Shown: piece after piece, positions 38,030-45,433 of the stretch
Layout: each line of letters begins with the position of its first letter
Numbering within the stretch: position 1 is the first letter of the stretch
Program-made: the position numbers and the translations under genes
NCBI RefSeq assembly: GCF_001042675.1
Contig: NZ_AP012333.1
Location: 868,001 to 932,000, forward strand
Direction of reading: 5' to 3'
DNA from: Parascardovia denticolens DSM 10105 = JCM 12538
GTDB lineage: Bacteria > Actinomycetota > Actinomycetes > Actinomycetales > Bifidobacteriaceae
DNA: 64,000 nucleotides
The notes under the pieces: model-generated
Told to the model about the DNA's origin: nothing
Seen by the model: the letters and a program-made list of their open reading frames with translations, nothing else
Database searches by the model: none

Positions 38030-38698
38030 ATGGCTATCAGTCAGGAAGAGCTGGCCCAGGTTCGCAGGCTCACCATCAAGGCGACGGTCTGCTCCATCGC
38101 GGTCATCCAGGGGGACCAGCCTTCAGTCACTTATGAGAACTGCGGGGAGGATGATTTCTCCTTCAATTTCCAGGAAGACAAGCTCAAGGTGAAGATCAAC
38201 AAGTCCCAGTGGAAGAAGAACCATCCTGACCGGGTGATCTTCAATGGCTTCCTCACTATCCGAGGCACTATCGGCACCAGCAGGAAGGACATGTACAAGC
38301 TCACCATCACTCTGCCGAAGCTGGATTCCCTGAAGATCTCAGCCGACGTGGCGACCGTGAAAGTGCACGGTTTCGATTTGAACAAGCTGAAAGTGGAGGC
38401 CAACGCCGCTACGGTGTCCATCAAGGGCTGCCAGACCAGGAAGGCCAGGATGCTGGTGGACGCGGGGGCCGTGAAGGCCCGGGGCCTCAACCTGCGGGAA
38501 GACAGCTCCTTCGAGGTCAACGCCGGCAGCCTGAAGTTGAAGGATTGCATTCGGCCGGACATGGGTCTGGACGTCCGTTCCACCCTGAGCCATGTAAGCC
38601 TCCCAGTCAACGGTTACAGCGGCCGTGGCAACTTCTACCGTGAAGGCAGCCCCATGGTCAGGCTTGAAGCGTCCGTCGGCAGCGTCAATTGCAGCTGA
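38030..38698 (+). CDS. DUF4097-like beta-helix protein
   Basis: 222-residue protein with the repeated short beta-strand pattern of DUF4097 (putative adhesin) proteins: LKISADVATVKVHGFDLNKLKVEANAATVSIKGC, MLVDAGAVKARGLNL, FEVNAGSLKLKDC. No signal peptide or membrane segment is seen, so it may be cytosolic; DUF4097 proteins often accompany sensing modules of envelope stress. ATG 38030 has an excellent ribosome binding site AAGGAGG (38017-38023). It ends 23 bp before the converging accessory cassette. Confidence 0.75.
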   Translation: MAISQEELAQVRRLTIKATVCSIAVIQGDQPSVTYENCGEDDFSFNFQEDKLKVKINKSQWKKNHPDRVIFNGFLTIRGTIGTSRKDMYKLTITLPKLDSLKISADVATVKVHGFDLNKLKVEANAATVSIKGCQTRKARMLVDAGAVKARGLNLREDSSFEVNAGSLKLKDCIRPDMGLDVRSTLSHVSLPVNGYSGRGNFYREGSPMVRLEASVGSVNCS

Positions 38699-38721: not shown

Positions 38722-39006
38722 CTAGCTCAGGAAGAAATCATCGATTTCGGAGTCAGTATGGAGGATTCTCTCCTCGGGTACCCCTGCTTTTTCCGCTAAT
38801 TCTATGGAAGCGACGAGCCGTAGTCTGACGTTCACCCCGAAATCGAACGAGTAGGTTTGCAGGTCACCCAGTTCGAGATAACGTGCGTGAATCTCTTGGA
38901 AGTGGCCTTGATATTCTTGATCCAGTCCCTGAACATACTGATTGATCTTTTGCTGATAGGAGGCAAGGGCTTCCTTCTCTTGCTTCGAGAGAAAATCTTT
39001 GCCCAT
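38722..39006 (-). CDS. C-terminal fragment of the glycine-zipper protein, cut off by an in-frame TGA
   Basis: 94-residue open stretch beginning MGKDFLSKQEKEALASYQQK. It is in exactly the same reading frame as the 392-residue protein upstream (39046-40224): after TGA at 39046-39048 come 13 sense codons (AAIGSLIATNALS) that continue the hydrophobic segment, then this ATG. The ATG at 39006 has no convincing ribosome binding site. It is best read as the tail of one roughly 500-residue protein rather than a separate gene. It ends in an acidic helix-rich tail (EKAGVPEERILHTDSEIDDFF). Confidence 0.6.
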   Translation of the reverse strand: MGKDFLSKQEKEALASYQQKINQYVQGLDQEYQGHFQEIHARYLELGDLQTYSFDFGVNVRLRLVASIELAEKAGVPEERILHTDSEIDDFFLS

Positions 39007-39045
39007 ACTCAGAGCGTTGGTCGCGATAAGCGAACCGATTGCCGC

Positions 39046-40224
39046 TCACAGGACGGGAATCGGAATCAGGGCTTGCCCCACGGCAGCTCCCAGGGCGGCC
39101 CCCACGGAATCGACGGAATTGAAGATGACCGCCTGAATAAAGCCGTCGTCATCCAGTCTTCCCGCCCTGTACTCAATAACCGAGTTCAGAAGGCCATAAG
39201 TCCCGCTCACAAGCGCTCCCGCACTAGGCGCTGCCAAGCCGCAGAAATCGGTCAGACCATAGATAGCGAAGCCGGAGAAGCCTCCTTTGAAAGCGCCTTG
39301 GGCGGTGGAAAGTCCGCAAGCCTTCCAATCCTCGCTACCATACTGCCATAGCTCCTTCCCTTCTTTGTGCTTCTTATAGGCGAAGGAGAGGAAATTGAAT
39401 CCTCCTTGGACGAAGGCTCCAGCGGCTCCGGCTTTGGCTGCCTCACCGAGGTCAGGCGCCGCCTTTTTCGCCGCGAGGGTTCGTTCCTGGTCCGCCTGGT
39501 TGTGAATTTCCTTGCTCTCTTCCTGCTTTTGTTGGAGGAAGGATTCCTTTTGGCTGGCGAAGGTCTTCTCATAGGTGTTCTTTTGGACCTGGTCGTAATC
39601 GGTTTGGGCTGGCCTCATCCATTGAGAAAAAGGAGCCTTTCGCTCTTGCTCTGCTTCCTTGATTATTTCCCTGATCCTAGTGATTTTTTTCTGGGAGAGG
39701 GGACTTCCCTCATATTCCACATGGGTCTCTCCGTTCATGATCGCTTTATAGATGGCGACATGGTCTTTGGGGAAGAGCATATCCATGTTCCGGTGTTCGG
39801 GGTTCAGCGTGGTCTTCAGTTCCTCTACCAGGTTCTGATAGAACTTGGCTTGAACGGCTTTGCCTCCTACCAGGAGGTCAGCAGGACCGTTATTGTCAAA
39901 AGCCTTGATGATTGAATCAATTCCTTGGAAAGCGTTTTTGGCGTTGGAGATGCCTATCTCGGCTTGTTCGGCTATAAAGCCATGGATGCCTTTGATTCCG
40001 CCTCGGTCGGAAGCGATGTACTCGCCGATTCTGTTATCCGCTTTGACCAGCTGGTCTAAAGCATCCGCCAGCCGGTTGTTGAGGTCGTTTTCCGCATTCT
40101 GGCCATCGGTGAGGATTTTCTCCAAAGTATCCGCCAGGGTTTTCAAACGTTGGGTGTTGAGGAAACGGATGTAATCGGCTATCCCTTGGTTGATGACTTG
40201 GTCTTTCTCTTGTTCACTCAGCAT
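39046..40224 (-). CDS. Accessory glycine-zipper protein, main part (interrupted by TGA)
   Basis: 392 residues; I do not recognise a named family. ATG 40224 overlaps the end of the upstream gene by 11 bases, so the two are translationally coupled. Residues 1-300 are helical and charged (LSEQEKDQVINQGIADYIRF, QTDYDQVQKNTYEKTFASQK). The C-terminal ~100 residues are Gly/Ala-rich and hydrophobic (AAKAGAAGAFVQGGFNF, ALVSGTYGLLNSVIEY, AVGQALIPIPVL) and stop at TGA exactly where family-like sequence would have Gly. Base composition is lower in GC than in neighbours: a sampled line at 39661 has 26 G+C in 60. A membrane-inserting role is possible (inference). Confidence 0.7.
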   Translation of the reverse strand: MLSEQEKDQVINQGIADYIRFLNTQRLKTLADTLEKILTDGQNAENDLNNRLADALDQLVKADNRIGEYIASDRGGIKGIHGFIAEQAEIGISNAKNAFQGIDSIIKAFDNNGPADLLVGGKAVQAKFYQNLVEELKTTLNPEHRNMDMLFPKDHVAIYKAIMNGETHVEYEGSPLSQKKITRIREIIKEAEQERKAPFSQWMRPAQTDYDQVQKNTYEKTFASQKESFLQQKQEESKEIHNQADQERTLAAKKAAPDLGEAAKAGAAGAFVQGGFNFLSFAYKKHKEGKELWQYGSEDWKACGLSTAQGAFKGGFSGFAIYGLTDFCGLAAPSAGALVSGTYGLLNSVIEYRAGRLDDDGFIQAVIFNSVDSVGAALGAAVGQALIPIPVL

Positions 40225-41350
40225 GGGATTCCTCTTTTTCCGCTGGCTTGTCGGAGGGCTCTTCCGTTTGGATTTCCTGATTGATGAGCTGGGCGAGGAC
40301 CAAGGCGTGATTGACCAGGATACCGGCTTCTTCTTTTTCTTTCTGATTGAAAAGCTGATAATCCAGTCCTTTGACCTTGGCGTTGACCTGATCGACCAGA
40401 GAAATCTGCTCTTGAGTGAGTTCGTAGAGGGAATGGATTTTATCGAGGACCAGTTCAAGATTCCGGATGATGACTTCCCGACGCTCACGTTCCTCAATTG
40501 CCTTTTGAGCGTCAGTCTGATTCTTTTTTGCGGCATGATTACCAGCAGCGACAGCTCCGGCGAGCGCCACTCCTGCGATGGCCCAGCCGACAGGGCCGGC
40601 CAGGGCGAGCAGGGCGTCTCCAGCAGCCATGCCGCCCCCTCCTGCAGCTAGCGCTCCGCCGCCCAACCAGGCCAAAGCGGCGTTTTCGGCTGCCGCTCCG
40701 CTTAAGGTGGCGATGGCCGCTCCGGTGGAAGCGGTTCCGAAGGTGGTTGCGATTCCCATGGCCGCAGTTGGCCCCAAAGTCGCGACCGCCACACCCAGAG
40801 CGCTGACGGTAGAGCCGATTCCCGCTGCCTCGCCGGCCATTTTCGCCTCCTTTTCCGCTTCGGTGATTTCGTGGGTCTTCGCAGTGAAATCTTCGATCTC
40901 CCAACGTATTTCCTGAAGATCAGTCTCGAATTTCTTAGGAGTGTTAGCCAGGGAATTGATATGGCTTTCCGCCAGCCGAACATGGAGGAGGGCGTTGTTG
41001 CGGAGCTCGTAGAATTTCGTGCTGGCTTCCTGGGTTTCTTTCGCCTTTTCCGTGTAGAGGGAAACCGCCTGATTATAGTCTTTCACTGCATGCTTACGCA
41101 GGCCGGCATTCAGGAAACCGTTCTTCTTCGTGTTGTCGACAAAGTCCTCGGCAGCGTTCCCTGCGGATCGCACGGCGTTCCCGGCTGACCGGACTGCAGT
41201 GCTGGCGGCCTTGGCCGGATCTTTCGCGGCCCATTTGACTGTCTCCCCGGTTTTACTCGCAGCCTTCCGCAGATTCTTCCCTGCATCGGAAAGGCCTTTA
41301 TGAATGTTTTTCCCTGTATCATCAGCCAGCTTTTTAAGGTCGATTCCCAT
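40214..41350 (-). CDS. Accessory glycine-zipper protein, first gene of the cassette
   Basis: 378-residue protein without a recognised family. ATG 41350 with AAAGGTG is preferred over the upstream ATG at 41410. In order: a basic helical start rich in KAxS and AGNA repeats (SKTGETVKWAAKDPAKAAST, RSAGNAVRSAGNAAEDF), a coiled-coil-like region (about 95-185), a long Gly/Ala-rich hydrophobic block (about 185-280, including WLGGGALAAGGGGMAAGD and LLALAGPVGWAIAGVALAGAV), then a second helical region and an acidic tail. The middle block looks like glycine-zipper membrane helices. GC is low (28 of 60 in the line at 40381). Coupled to the next gene by an 11-nt overlap. Confidence 0.75.
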   Translation of the reverse strand: MGIDLKKLADDTGKNIHKGLSDAGKNLRKAASKTGETVKWAAKDPAKAASTAVRSAGNAVRSAGNAAEDFVDNTKKNGFLNAGLRKHAVKDYNQAVSLYTEKAKETQEASTKFYELRNNALLHVRLAESHINSLANTPKKFETDLQEIRWEIEDFTAKTHEITEAEKEAKMAGEAAGIGSTVSALGVAVATLGPTAAMGIATTFGTASTGAAIATLSGAAAENAALAWLGGGALAAGGGGMAAGDALLALAGPVGWAIAGVALAGAVAAGNHAAKKNQTDAQKAIEERERREVIIRNLELVLDKIHSLYELTQEQISLVDQVNAKVKGLDYQLFNQKEKEEAGILVNHALVLAQLINQEIQTEEPSDKPAEKEESHAE

Positions 41351-41433
41351 GTGAGCACCTTTCTGTGTGAAATAAGAAACGGAGAGGCTTTCATTCCCCT
41401 CCGTAACCATGAAGAATTTCTTTAAAATCTAGC

Positions 41434-41444
41434 GGGGGGGGGGG
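41434..41444. repeat. G11 homopolymer tract
   Basis: Eleven consecutive G (C on the minus strand) lie 84 bp upstream of the start codon of the cassette gene at 41350 and 141 bp upstream of the nicotinamidase start. Such tracts are prone to slippage; this position is in the divergent promoter region. Confidence 0.85.
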
Positions 41445-41584: not shown

Positions 41585-42217
41585 ATGACGAAAGCATTGA
41601 TTATCGTGGATGTTCAGCCGACCTTCTGCGAAGGAGGGGAGCTGCCGGTGCAAGGCGGGAATGCGGTCGCCGCCCGGATCGCCGCCTTCGTCGCTCGACA
41701 TCGGCCCGATTACGACTATATAGCCACCACTCAGGATTGGCATATCGAACCGGGTAACCATTGGTCGGAGCACCCCGATTATGCCGATACCTGGCCGGTG
41801 CATGGCAAGGCCGGCAGCCCTAACGCGGATCTTCACCCGGCGATAGCCGCCTTGGGGATCAGACATCATTTCAAGAAAGGGCAATATAAAGCCGCTTACT
41901 CCGGCTTCGAAGGGATCGAGGACAACTCGTCACGGATCCATAGCCGCCAGGAATTCGCCGATTTCGAAAGCAAGGGCCTGACTTTGGCCCATGCCTTGGA
42001 AGAGGCCGGGGCCGATCAGGTGGACGTGGTCGGTCTGGCTGAATCCCATTGCGTCAAGGAGACCGCCTTGGACGCCGTCAAACTCGGCTATCGGGTTCGG
42101 GTCTTCGAAGATCTGACCGCCCCGACCAGCGAGGACCTGGGTCTTCTGGCAAGGAAAGAGATGAAGGCAGCTGGGGTGGAACTGGTTGATCAGGCTTTGC
42201 CGCTGGCCGACCTCTGA
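41585..42217 (+). CDS. pncA: Nicotinamidase (isochorismatase family)
   Basis: Hydrolyses nicotinamide to nicotinate in NAD salvage; works upstream of NadE, also in this window. Catalytic Asp in ALIIVDVQPTFCEGGELPV, metal-binding residues in TTQDWHI... and DTWPVHGKAG, and catalytic Cys in GLAESHCVKETALDAVKLGY are visible. The Lys of the triad lies in KGQYKAAYSGFEG. The usual TDxCV before the Cys is ESHCV here. ATG 41585 has only a weak ribosome binding site (AAAGGAAG). 210 residues. Its 3' end overlaps that of the converging DUF3021 gene by 28 bp. Confidence 0.9.
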   Translation: MTKALIIVDVQPTFCEGGELPVQGGNAVAARIAAFVARHRPDYDYIATTQDWHIEPGNHWSEHPDYADTWPVHGKAGSPNADLHPAIAALGIRHHFKKGQYKAAYSGFEGIEDNSSRIHSRQEFADFESKGLTLAHALEEAGADQVDVVGLAESHCVKETALDAVKLGYRVRVFEDLTAPTSEDLGLLARKEMKAAGVELVDQALPLADL

Positions 42218-42771
42218 TCCTCCGATTCCCGGGCATTGACGGCCTGGATCCGCGCGTTCACGGCATCGACTTCCTTACGCGCCCGCCAGACGGAAATCGA
42301 CCATACGACTGCATAAACCAGGAACCAGATGAGGGTGTAGATGATCATCCACGGGACGTTCAGCGGGAACCAGCCTGCGCAGACCATCAAAATCGTGGAC
42401 AGGACATAGCAGATCAGGCAATGGACGATGGTCCGTTTCAGCAGGGACCAGGCGGTTTTCTGCCAGACGTAATTTCCCCAGGAGAAGACCAGGCCGATCA
42501 GGCACCACAGCAGGAAGCTGGCCGCAACCCCCTCCAGCTGGGTAGGGAAGTGGGCCATGAAGCGGGGAGGGGCGGGGTAATACTCTTTGGTGTGGTTGAG
42601 GGCACTGGAGAGAAGAGATGCGACACCCCCGATAAGCATGCCCAACCCCGCGCCTTTGATCCCGTTCCAGAGGATCTTTCCCAGGGCCAGCGGCTTTTCC
42701 TCCTCGTTTGTTCTCAGATCATCCCAGTCGCGCGAGTCCGCCTGACCGGGGGAGAGATGTTCTTGGTTCAT
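42190..42771 (-). CDS. DUF3021 membrane protein
   Basis: 193-residue protein with four predicted membrane helices (GAGLGMLIGGVASLLSSAL, GVAASFLLWCLIGLVFSWG, TIVHCLICYVLSTILMVCAGW, WMIIYTLIWFLVYAVVWSISVW) and short charged ends. It is encoded 25 bp behind the LytTR gene with ribosome binding site AAGGAG. In LytTR regulatory systems of Firmicutes and actinobacteria a DUF3021 membrane protein is typically the partner or inhibitor of the LytTR regulator, so this is the likely sensor of the operon. Family call made by eye from topology plus context. Confidence 0.8.
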   Translation of the reverse strand: MNQEHLSPGQADSRDWDDLRTNEEEKPLALGKILWNGIKGAGLGMLIGGVASLLSSALNHTKEYYPAPPRFMAHFPTQLEGVAASFLLWCLIGLVFSWGNYVWQKTAWSLLKRTIVHCLICYVLSTILMVCAGWFPLNVPWMIIYTLIWFLVYAVVWSISVWRARKEVDAVNARIQAVNARESEDQRSASGKA

Positions 42772-42796
42772 AGGGTCTCCTTAATGATGACAGGGT

Positions 42797-43261
42797 TCAC
42801 AGGCCGAGCCTTTTTTTGAAATCGGACACGAAGCGCCGGGAGACCTGTATCCTCTCATGGTTCTTCATGACGACGTTGATGGTCCCGGTGAAACTCAAAT
42901 CGAGGAATTGGATCTTATGGGCGTTGATAGTGGCCGTGCGGGAGGCGTCCAGGAAAGTATCAGGAAGGAGCTGACGGATTTGATAAAGCCGGCCTCTGAA
43001 TTCGTACCTGCCTTGGGCGGTCATCACATAGGTCTTCTCCCGCAGGGTATAAACGGCGTAAATGTTTTCCACCTGAATGGGGACCAGGGAAGTGCCGAAG
43101 GCGCACCAGATGAGGCCCTCTTCTTCGGGGTTGCCCTTTTCCAGATTGTCTTCGGACAGGATGCGAATAGCCTCTTCAACGGCAGGACTCATGGCTTTCA
43201 GGTGAAAATCCACACGTTCCGGTCCGTCGAAGGAAGGATCAATCCGGAGATTCAGGTCCAT
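42797..43261 (-). CDS. LytTR-domain DNA-binding regulator
   Basis: 154 residues without a receiver domain. The C-terminal ~100 residues carry the LytTR fold: GTSLVPIQVENIYAVYTLREKTYVMTAQGRYEFRGRLYQIRQLLP, then FLDASRTATINAHKIQFLDL and IQVSRRFVSDFKKRLG, all typical. The N-terminal 60 residues are a small alpha/beta lead. ATG 43261 is preferred because AAGGAG lies six bases upstream. Probably activates the ABC exporter operon and itself. In LytTR/DUF3021 pairs the regulator is freed from the membrane protein by an unknown signal (family knowledge). Confidence 0.88.
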   Translation of the reverse strand: MDLNLRIDPSFDGPERVDFHLKAMSPAVEEAIRILSEDNLEKGNPEEEGLIWCAFGTSLVPIQVENIYAVYTLREKTYVMTAQGRYEFRGRLYQIRQLLPDTFLDASRTATINAHKIQFLDLSFTGTINVVMKNHERIQVSRRFVSDFKKRLGL

Positions 43262-43353
43262 TCTTGCTCCTTGGATCTGTGATGGGGGGCAATCGGGGGC
43301 GGACACATAAGCATCCGTCTCCGATTATTTTATTCCTTGCCGCTTATCGATGA

Positions 43354-44268
43354 TTATCGTTGGGCCGCCCCGCCCAGGCGGGTCCCCAGGATGAAAATCA
43401 GGAGAAAAACCAGGCTGAAACCCACAAGCACCCCATGCATGACGTCGGTCGGGACCGGATTTCCTTGGAAAGAGACGGTAAAGCTGATGCCTTCTTTGAT
43501 ACTGTCCAGAGCGGAAGTCGGCAGACCGGCCTTCTTCAACAAATCGATGGAGCTGCCCATGACATGTTGGCGGATCACGGTCGTGGCATAAGTGCTGGGC
43601 AGGTAGGAACAGACCTTTTGCAATCCAGGGGAATAACTGGCGAAAGGCATGTAGGCCCCGCAGATGAAGCCGTAGCCGGCGTTGACGATGGATCCGACAG
43701 CCGTCGCCTGCCCCTGGGTATTCAGCCAGATCGTGAGCGCGGTGGCCATGGCCGTTCCTAAAAGGGTGAGGACGACCACATCCACAAGAATCCATGCGAC
43801 CATGGAGGCGGTGATGGGGACGGAGCTGGCGTGCAGGTAAATTAGGCTGGCGATCAGGGCCAGACCATTGACGATCATGGATGCCAGGAAGGAGGAAGCG
43901 AAATAGGCGGCGCTCAAGGTGAGCATTCTGATCGGAGTCACGGTCAAGTCGTTGATCCTGTGGCTGGCCCTGTCTTTGACGATGAGCAGGCTGGAGGTGA
44001 AGGTGATGGTGATGCAGCTGACGGCCAGGAGGGAGGAAATCATCTGGGAGGAGCTCAAGGCGGTGATGGTGGATTCAGGAACTTTGGCCTGCGGAGGAAT
44101 GCCGCTTTTGAAGCTGTTCTGATAAATCCTCAAAAGGAAGGTGGCGTAGAGGACCAGAAGGATGACCGGGGTGATCAGGGAACTGAAGAAGGAGCCCTTG
44201 TCTTTGAAGAAAAGCTTGGTGTCTCGGGCTGTCAGGGAGAGGAAAGTGCGCATGGTTTTCGCTTTCAT
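43354..44268 (-). CDS. ABC-2 type exporter permease
   Basis: 304-residue membrane component with six predicted helices, starting with FSSLITPVILLVLYATFLL and including MISSLLAVSCITITFTSSLL, SAAYFASSFLASMIVNGLALIASLIYLH and VAWILVDVVVLTLLGTAMATALTIWL, then SLVFLLIFILGTRLGG near the end. The arrangement is that of ABC-2 permeases (DrrB/NodJ type). The substrate cannot be deduced. ATG 44268 or 44253 are both possible; neither has a strong ribosome binding site. Lies 54 bp behind the ATPase gene and 92 bp before the LytTR gene. Confidence 0.88.
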   Translation of the reverse strand: MKAKTMRTFLSLTARDTKLFFKDKGSFFSSLITPVILLVLYATFLLRIYQNSFKSGIPPQAKVPESTITALSSSQMISSLLAVSCITITFTSSLLIVKDRASHRINDLTVTPIRMLTLSAAYFASSFLASMIVNGLALIASLIYLHASSVPITASMVAWILVDVVVLTLLGTAMATALTIWLNTQGQATAVGSIVNAGYGFICGAYMPFASYSPGLQKVCSYLPSTYATTVIRQHVMGSSIDLLKKAGLPTSALDSIKEGISFTVSFQGNPVPTDVMHGVLVGFSLVFLLIFILGTRLGGAAQR

Positions 44269-44322
44269 GGGTAGGGGCCGGTTTCCTGGTTGGTGCGTCG
44301 TGGCTGGTCTGTTTACAGGGGT

Positions 44323-45282
44323 CTATTCCGTCGTCTCCGCTGAGGAAGGCGTGGGCAAGGGGTCGCCCGTTTGATGGGCCGATTCGTTTTCGGCCTGGCG
44401 GACCACCTTGAGGAAGACGTCGTCCATCTTCCCTTTGATCACCTCATAATTGGTGAAAAGGCCAGGATGGGCAAGGATGAGTTCGGTCGCTTGGGCGGGG
44501 GAATTGACAGGGATGTCGAACCGTCCCGCTCGAGCCCGATAAGGAAGGCCCAGCTCCTGGACCTCCTTCTCGTCGTGGTCGTAGATGATCACCGTATCCC
44601 CGGCGTACGTGGTTTTCAGATTCAAGGGAGTTCCTTGGGCGATGATGCGACCCTTATCGATGATGATGGAGTAATCCGCCTGGGCGGCCTCTTCCATGTA
44701 ATGGGTGGTCAAAAGGACGGTGATTCCCCGTTCGTTTTGCAAAGACCGGATGACATTCCACAGATCCCGCCGGGTCTGGGGGTCCAGGCCGGTGGTGGGT
44801 TCATCCAGAATCAGCAGGGAAGGCTCATGGATGATGGCCCGGGCTATGTCGACTCGACGGCGTTGCCCGCCCGATAGCTTGCGGACCTCCTGCTTGGCCA
44901 GGGGATCCAGGTCCAAAGCCGAGGCCAGCCGCCGATAGCGCTTGCGGAAATCCCGTCCATGGATCCCATAGAGGGCGGCCCGATAGCGCAAGTTGTCCTC
45001 CACCGACAGGTCTTTATCCAAGAGGGAATCCTGAAAGACGACCCCTAAGGAGGCCTTCACCTCCCGCAAAGAGGAAGCCGTCTGGCGCCCATTGATGCTG
45101 ATGGTCCCCGAATCGGGCCTAAGTTGCCCGCAAATCATGGAGATGGTCGTGCTTTTCCCCGCCCCATTGACTCCGAGGAAGGCGAAAAGCTGACCTTTAT
45201 CCACGTGAAAAGACAAATCCCGCACGGCATGCAGATGCCCGAAGCTCTTGTTGAGATGGGAGATGGTCAGGAGTGGCTGCAT
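44323..45282 (-). CDS. ABC transporter ATP-binding protein (ABC-2 type exporter)
   Basis: 319-residue ATPase energising the permease encoded next to it. Motifs: Walker A LGVNGAGKSTTISMI, Q-loop LGVVFQDSLL, signature LSGGQRRRVDIARAI, Walker B LLILDEPTTGLD and the H-loop Thr-His in LLTTHYMEEAAQ. ATG 45282 follows AAAGGAAG. The extra C-terminal ~80 residues are typical of DrrA/NatA-type drug or peptide exporters. First gene of the likely operon ATPase-permease-LytTR-DUF3021. Confidence 0.95.
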   Translation of the reverse strand: MQPLLTISHLNKSFGHLHAVRDLSFHVDKGQLFAFLGVNGAGKSTTISMICGQLRPDSGTISINGRQTASSLREVKASLGVVFQDSLLDKDLSVEDNLRYRAALYGIHGRDFRKRYRRLASALDLDPLAKQEVRKLSGGQRRRVDIARAIIHEPSLLILDEPTTGLDPQTRRDLWNVIRSLQNERGITVLLTTHYMEEAAQADYSIIIDKGRIIAQGTPLNLKTTYAGDTVIIYDHDEKEVQELGLPYRARAGRFDIPVNSPAQATELILAHPGLFTNYEVIKGKMDDVFLKVVRQAENESAHQTGDPLPTPSSAETTE

Positions 45283-45433
45283 GGGCTTCCTTTCGTCGAT
45301 CGTCCTGCGTCTTTCCCAGTCTATGCCCAAGCTGTCCAAAGGAGGCCGTGGATTTTGTCAGCGGTCAGGGAATGGACGTGAGCGGTAAGGGACGACCCCC
45401 CTGATATGCCAGCATACGGATAAAGTGGAAGCC

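What the first reader, a model, noticed from the sequence alone, without database searches (positions are those of the whole stretch)
38722..41350. Lower-GC two-gene glycine-zipper cassette, possibly a new membrane-active system
Seen: two coupled genes (40214-41350 and 38722-40224) overlap by 11 bases, encode charged helical proteins each with a Gly/Ala-rich hydrophobic block (WLGGGALAAGGGGMAAGD; GQALIPIPVL), and have clearly lower GC than the core (26 and 28 of 60 in sampled lines against 37 of 60 in aspS). No known domain is recognisable. Inference: a horizontally acquired pair whose products insert in membranes, e.g. a toxin-like or defence module.
Basis: partly seen in the sequence, partly recalled or inferred. 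Interest (0 to 1): 0.75.

Follow-up and report, generated by a model that had tools for sequence, protein, structure and literature searches.

The report
Broken copy of candidate phage-defence pair
Two adjacent genes that this relative of bifidobacteria picked up from elsewhere belong to a widespread but untested family of suspected virus-defence gene pairs, probably a membrane-docked nucleic-acid-cutting enzyme and its membrane partner, and in this genome the second gene is cut short by a stop signal.

Summary
The two genes are real. Gene A is 40214-41350(-), 378 aa. All 53 other B proteins aligned have glycine there.

A and read-through B match, nearly full length, the PADLOC candidate defence pair PDC-M09A/B (1.5e-94, 2.9e-149). 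The held PMC library has no paper naming PDC-M09. The pair is rare in the family (4 of 189 genomes, one of them doubtful), missing from a sister genome whose flanking genes lie 55 bases apart, and B groups with Bacillota copies, not with two other bifidobacterial ones.

B carries an invariant H-E-D-QxK set in an alpha-beta3-alpha-beta layout, suggesting a PD-(D/E)XK-like nuclease (no profile or fold match confirms this), then a glycine-zipper domain. A's hyperconserved glycine-zipper block resembles the LeoBC dynamin membrane region (51 of 52 members). B's C-terminal tail recurs in a different partner of A-like proteins; the stop removes it.

Best reading: a membrane-docked nuclease defence pair, probably inactive here.

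The parts
40214..41350 (-). gene A, 378 aa, PDC-M09A-like; start ATG at 41350 preceded by AAAGGTG
   Evidence: PADLOC PDLC04407 E 1.5e-94, residues 80-361 on profile 2-281 of 282
41114..41350 (-). A residues 1-79: lysine-rich amphipathic N-terminal extension, lacking in most A relatives aligned (gapped in 5 of 8)
   Evidence: predicted helices 5-41 and 45-74
40583..40771 (-). A residues 194-256: hyperconserved glycine-zipper block between two coiled-coil arms
   Evidence: overlaps the LeoBC-like stretch 230-336; low model confidence (pLDDT 31-70) at 181-270
39046..40224 (-). gene B as it can be translated: 392 aa, ending at the in-frame TGA
39736..39984 (-). B residues 81-163: PD-(D/E)XK-like domain with invariant H81, E86, D116, Q125, K127
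   Evidence: 54 of 54 rows identical at these positions; predicted order helix 83-99, strands 106-108, 117-119, 122-126, helix 132-140, strand 148-151, helix 153-163
39049..39336 (-). B residues 297-392: glycine-zipper hydrophobic domain up to the stop
39046..39048 (-). in-frame TGA, codon 393 of B, where 53 of 53 other aligned relatives have glycine
38722..39045 (-). remnant of B: codons 394-500 and the terminal TAG, still aligned full length to the family
   Evidence: read-through profile match to 480 of 480; identity to relatives no lower than in the first part
38728..38820 (-). B residues 469-499: conserved C-terminal tail shared with the unrelated partner protein X of other A-like proteins
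   Evidence: hhalign tail-only score 51.0, E 1.4e-7, 60 shuffles at most 21.0; B profile finds the tail in X of L142, L149, L141
41351..41584 (.). divergent leader between pncA-like gene and A: 11-base G run at 41434-41444 and a 9-pair terminator-like hairpin at 41404-41379(-)
   Evidence: no sigma-70-like promoter found
38030..38698 (+). left flank: gene conserved in sister genome G001 (42% identity)
41585..42217 (+). right flank: nicotinamidase-like gene (label recalled), 78% identical in G001, there 55 bases from the left flank

Best explanation
An acquired copy of the two-gene candidate phage-defence system PDC-M09. A is a helical hairpin whose glycine-zipper tip inserts in or packs on the inner membrane. 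B has a long helix, a PD-(D/E)XK-like nuclease domain, a second glycine-zipper membrane domain and a C-terminal tail. The likely working: A and B form a membrane-docked complex through B's zipper domain and tail, which keeps the nuclease away from the chromosome until incoming phage or plasmid nucleic acid, or an infection signal, meets it at the membrane. In this genome B ends at codon 393, in the middle of its most hydrophobic stretch and before the tail, so the system is probably inactive or crippled. Shown: the gene pair, the family match, the stop, mobility, the conserved residues and the shared tail. Inferred: nuclease activity, membrane insertion, docking, defence.
For: PADLOC full-length matches for both genes and for 54 of 54 B rows and 52 of 52 A rows. 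A found next to B in 79 of 80 relatives kept out of 247. H81, G82, E86, D116, Q125 and K127 identical in 54 of 54 rows, with predicted secondary structure in PD-(D/E)XK order; D and QxK kept in two far relatives (L145 and the third E. coli gene in L127) and QxK in a third (L140). A: LeoBC dynamin membrane region in 51 of 52. Shared tail. Mobility: 60 of 72,556 plasmids, 6 near-full-length viral-contig loci of 9, 6 of 5,426 E. coli genomes with a place covering over 60%, 4 of 4 viewed lying in mobile islands, with SIR2 in two (L127, L128), BREX and TrlF genes in one (L129), and a WYL or YafY regulator directly upstream in 3 of 4. Acquisition. Break.
Against: No solved structure, Pfam family or fold match supports the nuclease reading: profile search of the domain, hhalign against 13 Mrr_cat domains at shuffled-control level, Foldseek best E 0.46 for B and none under 0.001 in viral models. 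Gln replaces the usual acidic residue of the (D/E)XK motif. No experiment on PDC-M09 was found. Immediate neighbours are only partly defence genes (no control set). The identity of the tail to relatives has not decayed, so the stop is very recent, suppressed, or a sequencing error.
Confidence: 0.48

Rival explanations
1. Abortive infection by membrane damage: A (with B's zipper) forms a pore or breaches the inner membrane on infection, and B's conserved domain is a sensor or trigger rather than a nuclease.
For: Both proteins have glycine-zipper blocks; the best Foldseek rows for A include ClyA pore protomers (6mrt_A probability 0.87, E 0.11; 2wcd_A 0.80, E 0.26) and SmhB and AhlB; A is the constant member while partners vary.
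Against: None of those structural scores is significant, and VIA Z for ClyA (5.5 and 5.1) is inside the range given for unrelated helical proteins. The E-D-QxK set in B is invariant, as expected for an active site.
Confidence: 0.25
2. A dynamin-type membrane-support system that delays lysis, as reported for DynA, with B as an accessory.
For: LeoBC membrane-region match in 51 of 52 A members; a 'dynamin family protein' is annotated near the pair in 3 of 4 Lactococcus plasmids viewed (not), one of them a LeoBC match; DynA delays lysis (PMC8844932, abstract).
Against: A has no GTPase domain (378 aa, all helical); 55 of the 59 neighbour-scanned loci were not checked for dynamins by annotation; B's invariant polar set is unexplained.
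Confidence: 0.1
3. The TGA is not a break: the stop is read through, or B works as two polypeptides, or it is a sequencing error in this assembly.
For: Codons 394-500 keep frame and identity (C/N identity ratio 1.02 against 0.87 +/- 0.11 in 54 clade pairs); gene A is intact; a 94-aa ORF starts 13 codons past the stop.
Against: 0 of 88 other B loci examined has a stop inside the matched stretch; no reinitiation signal at the stop was seen; glycine in 53 of 53 relatives.
Confidence: 0.25
4. Not defence: a membrane toxin or other accessory pair carried by mobile elements for competition or stabilisation.
For: Defence function of PDC-M09 is untested in the papers found; neighbours are mixed.
Against: No secretion signal, immunity gene or toxin-antitoxin layout was seen at the loci viewed; regulators and neighbours in E. 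coli are of defence type.
Confidence: 0.12

Closest known systems
PDC-M09 (PADLOC-DB 2.0.0 candidate system, genes PDC-M09A and PDC-M09B)
   Same: Both genes, order, overlap and near-full-length profile coverage.
   Different: B is interrupted at codon 393; A has an extra N-terminal extension of about 80 aa beyond the shorter profile.
LeoBC / LeoABC bacterial dynamins
   Same: A residues 230-336 match LeoBC profile 457-567 of 601 (7.2e-8), the membrane-binding region by the description in PMC4159319 (passages).
   Different: No GTPase domain in A; different partner gene.
SNIPE (membrane-bound nuclease; PMC13190303, abstract and one section read)
   Same: Proposed working: nuclease held at the inner membrane, where phage DNA enters.
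   Different: SNIPE is one protein with one transmembrane helix, DUF4041 and a GIY-YIG nuclease; here two proteins, glycine zippers, and a PD-(D/E)XK-like motif. No membership claimed.
X-A pairs and X-A fusions of bifidobacteria and lactobacilli (unnamed here)
   Same: A-like protein with the same glycine-zipper block; X ends in the same tail as B.
   Different: X has a different body with no similarity to B 1-392 (hhalign score 14.8).

Membership tests
PDC-M09 (PADLOC) | gene matching PDC-M09A over its length | tested here: met
   PDLC04407 E 1.5e-94, profile 2-281 of 282
PDC-M09 (PADLOC) | adjacent gene matching PDC-M09B over its length | tested here: inconclusive
   Met only if the TGA is read through: 3-480 of 480; the 392-aa product alone covers 3-372 of 480
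PDC-M09 (PADLOC) | anti-phage activity | not testable with these tools
   candidate only; no paper found
PD-(D/E)XK nuclease superfamily | acidic and lysine active-site residues E..D..(D/E)xK | tested here: inconclusive
   E86, D116, K127 invariant in 54 of 54, but Q125 in place of the acid; QxK also occurs in Mrr_cat domains seen here
PD-(D/E)XK nuclease superfamily | alpha-beta3-alpha-beta core | tested here: inconclusive
bacterial dynamin (LeoBC) | membrane-insertion region | tested here: met
   51 of 52 members, best 1.3e-10
bacterial dynamin (LeoBC) | GTPase domain | tested here: not met
   no Pfam GTPase match; 378-aa all-helical model
SNIPE | DUF4041 and GIY-YIG nuclease in one protein | tested here: not met
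   no such Pfam match in A, B or B relatives' top lists
ClyA-type alpha pore-forming toxins | significant fold match | tested here: inconclusive
   Foldseek E 0.11, probability 0.87; VIA Z 5.5 and 5.1

The most novel reading that the evidence does not exclude
PDC-M09 is one branch of a modular defence superfamily: a constant glycine-zipper hairpin protein (A, akin to a dynamin membrane tip without its GTPase) holds interchangeable effectors at the membrane through a shared C-terminal tail. B is a membrane-docked nuclease with a QxK active site; X is a second effector type; some genomes, this one included, carry X and A fused in one protein. The window shows the B branch switched off by loss of the docking tail.
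Probability: 0.33. Interest if true: 0.72.

Novelty: new member of a known kind. Interest (0 to 1): 0.45.

Why it matters
PDC-M09 occurs in many phyla yet no function has been reported in the papers searched. The invariant E-D-QxK set, the dynamin-like membrane block of A and the tail shared with a second partner type turn it into a testable idea: a two-part, membrane-docked nuclease with exchangeable effectors. The local copy itself matters less, because B is cut short; it is an example of a recently acquired and perhaps already decaying defence gene.

Tried and rejected
Mrr family membership of B's domain: hhalign against 13 Mrr_cat domains gave score 11.5 over 4 columns, inside 40 reversed or shuffled controls (up to 17.4). 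One search had picked the wrong strand for four of those domains; one search corrected it.

Structure searches: no PDB chain at E <= 0.001 for A or B, none among viral models for B. B residues 256-383 gave the highest identity (23%) to a mitochondrial complex I subunit, 7zm7_J (VIA Z 5.8, rmsd 4.1, 111 aligned), and 257-343 to the TIM23 complex chain 8e1m_A (Z 5.6); both are inside the noise stated for helical models and probably reflect Gly/Ala content. PDB sequence searches with three profiles found nothing credible. NCBIfam's CdsZ match of A (5e-4, 19.6 bits against a cut-off of 275) and the Csn2 (4 of 54) and PDC-M62B (2 of 54) matches of B's domain were set aside as chance or coiled-coil effects.

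Family count: the fourth genome (G108, E 8e-4, two stops inside) overlaps an ORF that looks like a small channel protein (L005; label recalled) and is not counted as a relative. In G002 the right flank had no match and the left only 29%, so it says nothing about an empty site.

A as plasmid query gave only 5 records at 1e-10, matched on residues 73-198 at most, against 60 with B at 1e-3, because BLAST masks the glycine-rich part. A is interrupted by a stop in 2 of the 79 relatives in which it was found (L037, L071), and was not found in L051.

WYL regulators are not a general feature: my own profile found them in 3 of 87 loci, besides 3 of 4 E. coli loci viewed; L126 has a transposase there. 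Neighbour scan: 150 of 995 neighbour ORFs, at most 700 aa, from 59 loci: AbiLi 3, AriA 3, WYL 3, HsdS 2, Mad5 2, PDC-S31 2, BrxC/D 1, DUF697 3, integrase 2, besides MFS, serpin and other ordinary genes; only the first 25 families of each list are shown and no control set was run. Two of 152 chosen references were dropped to meet the limit.

Papers: Grafakou et al. 2024 (antiphage systems of the lactococcal plasmidome) is not held, so I cannot say whether the Lactococcus pair or the X gene was tested there; it was seen only as a citation in PMC13335696 (passages). Supplements were not searched. PMC11811056 (passages) calls the PDC series unpublished candidates. CoCoNuT paper PMC11090510 (passages) and DefensePredictor PMC13092281 (passages) gave nothing on this pair.

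Full report
What is there. Gene A (40214-41350, minus strand, 378 aa) is intact. Gene B starts at 40224 and overlaps A by 11 bases. Codon 393 is glycine in 53 of 53 other rows of the B alignment, and 0 of 88 other B loci examined (80 kept plus 8, a few near-identical, L003 and L082 being the same place) has a stop inside the matched stretch. So this copy is cut short. The 107 codons after the stop still align to the end of the family profile, and their identity to 12 clade members is no lower than that of the first 392 (ratio 1.02; 54 clade pairs give 0.87, sd 0.11). The stop is therefore recent, suppressed, or an error in the assembly.

What it is. PADLOC matches A to PDC-M09A (1.5e-94) and read-through B to PDC-M09B (2.9e-149, profile 3-480 of 480); the short product alone gives 3.1e-113 over 3-372. 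Pfam, NCBIfam and the PDB by sequence give nothing credible. No paper in the held PMC library contains 'PDC-M09'; another paper calls the PDC series unpublished candidates (PMC11811056, passages).

Acquisition. B is found in 1 of 3 genomes of the genus and 4 of 189 of the family, one of them doubtful, and in 3 of 396 genomes drawn from the phylum at 1e-10. In sister genome G001 the two flanking genes are 55 bases apart against 2,886 here. In a tree of 83 B proteins the window copy lies in a set of 19 (SH-aLRT 100) made of 13 Bacillota, 3 Actinomycetota, two Lactococcus plasmid copies and itself, while the two other bifidobacterial copies (L003, L004) lie in a different, well supported set. GC is lower (0.561 and 0.520 against 0.593 +/- 0.021).

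Spread. 247 relatives were found in the genome collection, 80 kept, from Bacillota, Actinomycetota, Cyanobacteriota, Bacteroidota, Pseudomonadota and others; A lies next to B in 79 of 80. B is on 60 of 72,556 plasmids, 1 of 50,697 phage records and 9 viral-contig loci, 6 near full length; one of these (L117) has genes that look like phage head genes beside it (label recalled). In E. coli, 11 of 5,426 genomes match, 5 over at least 80%, one over 62%, five only over 5-7%. Of the six, four were viewed: all lie beside integrases, IS elements or CbtA/YeeU, AlpA or antirestriction genes; three have a WYL or YafY regulator directly upstream; two have a SIR2 gene and one has BREX and TrlF genes within 10 kb.

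How it may work. In B, H81, G82, E86, D116, Q125 and K127 are identical in 54 of 54 rows. The AlphaFold2 model (mean pLDDT 84.0, pTM 0.61) puts E86 in a helix, D116 at the start of a strand and Q125-x-K127 on the next, followed by helix and strand: the order expected of a PD-(D/E)XK core (order recalled). Two far relatives keep D and QxK, a third QxK. Against this, no profile or fold comparison supports the nuclease, and the domain could not be folded alone. After it comes a hydrophobic glycine-zipper region whose strongest stretch (369-409) spans the stop. A has two helical arms (80-175 and 270-356, high confidence) around a low-confidence hydrophobic glycine-zipper block, the most conserved part of the family; 51 of 52 A members match the LeoBC dynamin profile there, a region described as membrane-binding (PMC4159319, passages).

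A second partner. The A profile matches 34 of 189 genomes of the family at 1e-3, far more than B. In four genomes with a full-length A match but no B (G022, G049, G077, G078) a different gene X lies directly upstream. X and B are unlike over B 1-392 (score 14.8) but share the C-terminal tail (tail alone: score 51.0, probability 94, E 1.4e-7; 60 shuffled tails at most 21.0). A profile of B finds this tail in X of L142, L141 and of a Lactiplantibacillus plasmid (L149) at 1.3e-6 to 1.7e-4. X occurs on 23 plasmids. This genome holds a 792-aa protein in which an X-like and an A-like part are joined (G000:C1:851489-853867), 14 kb left of the window. The tail is thus a candidate docking element for A-like proteins, and the window's stop removes it.

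Judgement. Membership in PDC-M09 is close to certain at the level of ancestry; the completeness of B is not. Defence function is likely but untested. The nuclease is a good guess from invariant residues, not a demonstrated fold. The working resembles SNIPE, a membrane-bound nuclease that cuts phage DNA on entry and becomes toxic when its membrane segment is removed (PMC13190303, abstract and one section), without being a member of it.

Noticed in passing
window 41434-41444: Run of 11 G in the leader of A, one of five distinct runs of 10 or more G or C in the 1.89 Mb genome; such tracts can vary in length and switch expression.
   Followed up: partly
window 41379-41404 (-): Nine-pair terminator-like hairpin with a T-rich tail just upstream of A's start, a possible attenuator; six such sites were found in the scanned stretch against 4.6 expected.
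   Followed up: no
L138 990-3368 (G000:C1:851489-853867), outside the window: 792-aa protein of the same genome that joins an X-like and an A-like part.
   Followed up: partly
L127 12328-14847 and the same gene in L128 and L120: Third gene of about 840 aa after B in E. coli islands; its C-terminal half weakly matches B, including the D and QxK motif, so it may be a B paralogue.
   Followed up: partly
L036 9417-9977, L038 9428-9949, L052 9417-9938: Small downstream gene, of a family that recurs in L036, L038, L039 and L052; DUF697 matches 3 of the 150 neighbours scanned, very likely these three.
   Followed up: no
L007, L130, L131: A dynamin family gene lies near the pair on three of four Lactococcus plasmids viewed; the one at L007 10298-12481 matches LeoBC at 1.8e-12.
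   Followed up: partly
L140 2356-5455: A further arrangement in a bifidobacterial genome: an A-like gene, a gene of 300 aa and a far B-like gene in one row.
   Followed up: no
L053 5864-7804: Two A-like genes in tandem before B in a cyanobacterial locus.
   Followed up: no
window 42190-45339: Next to the cassette lies what looks like a LytTR regulator, a small membrane protein and an ABC transporter (labels recalled from the translations).
   Followed up: no
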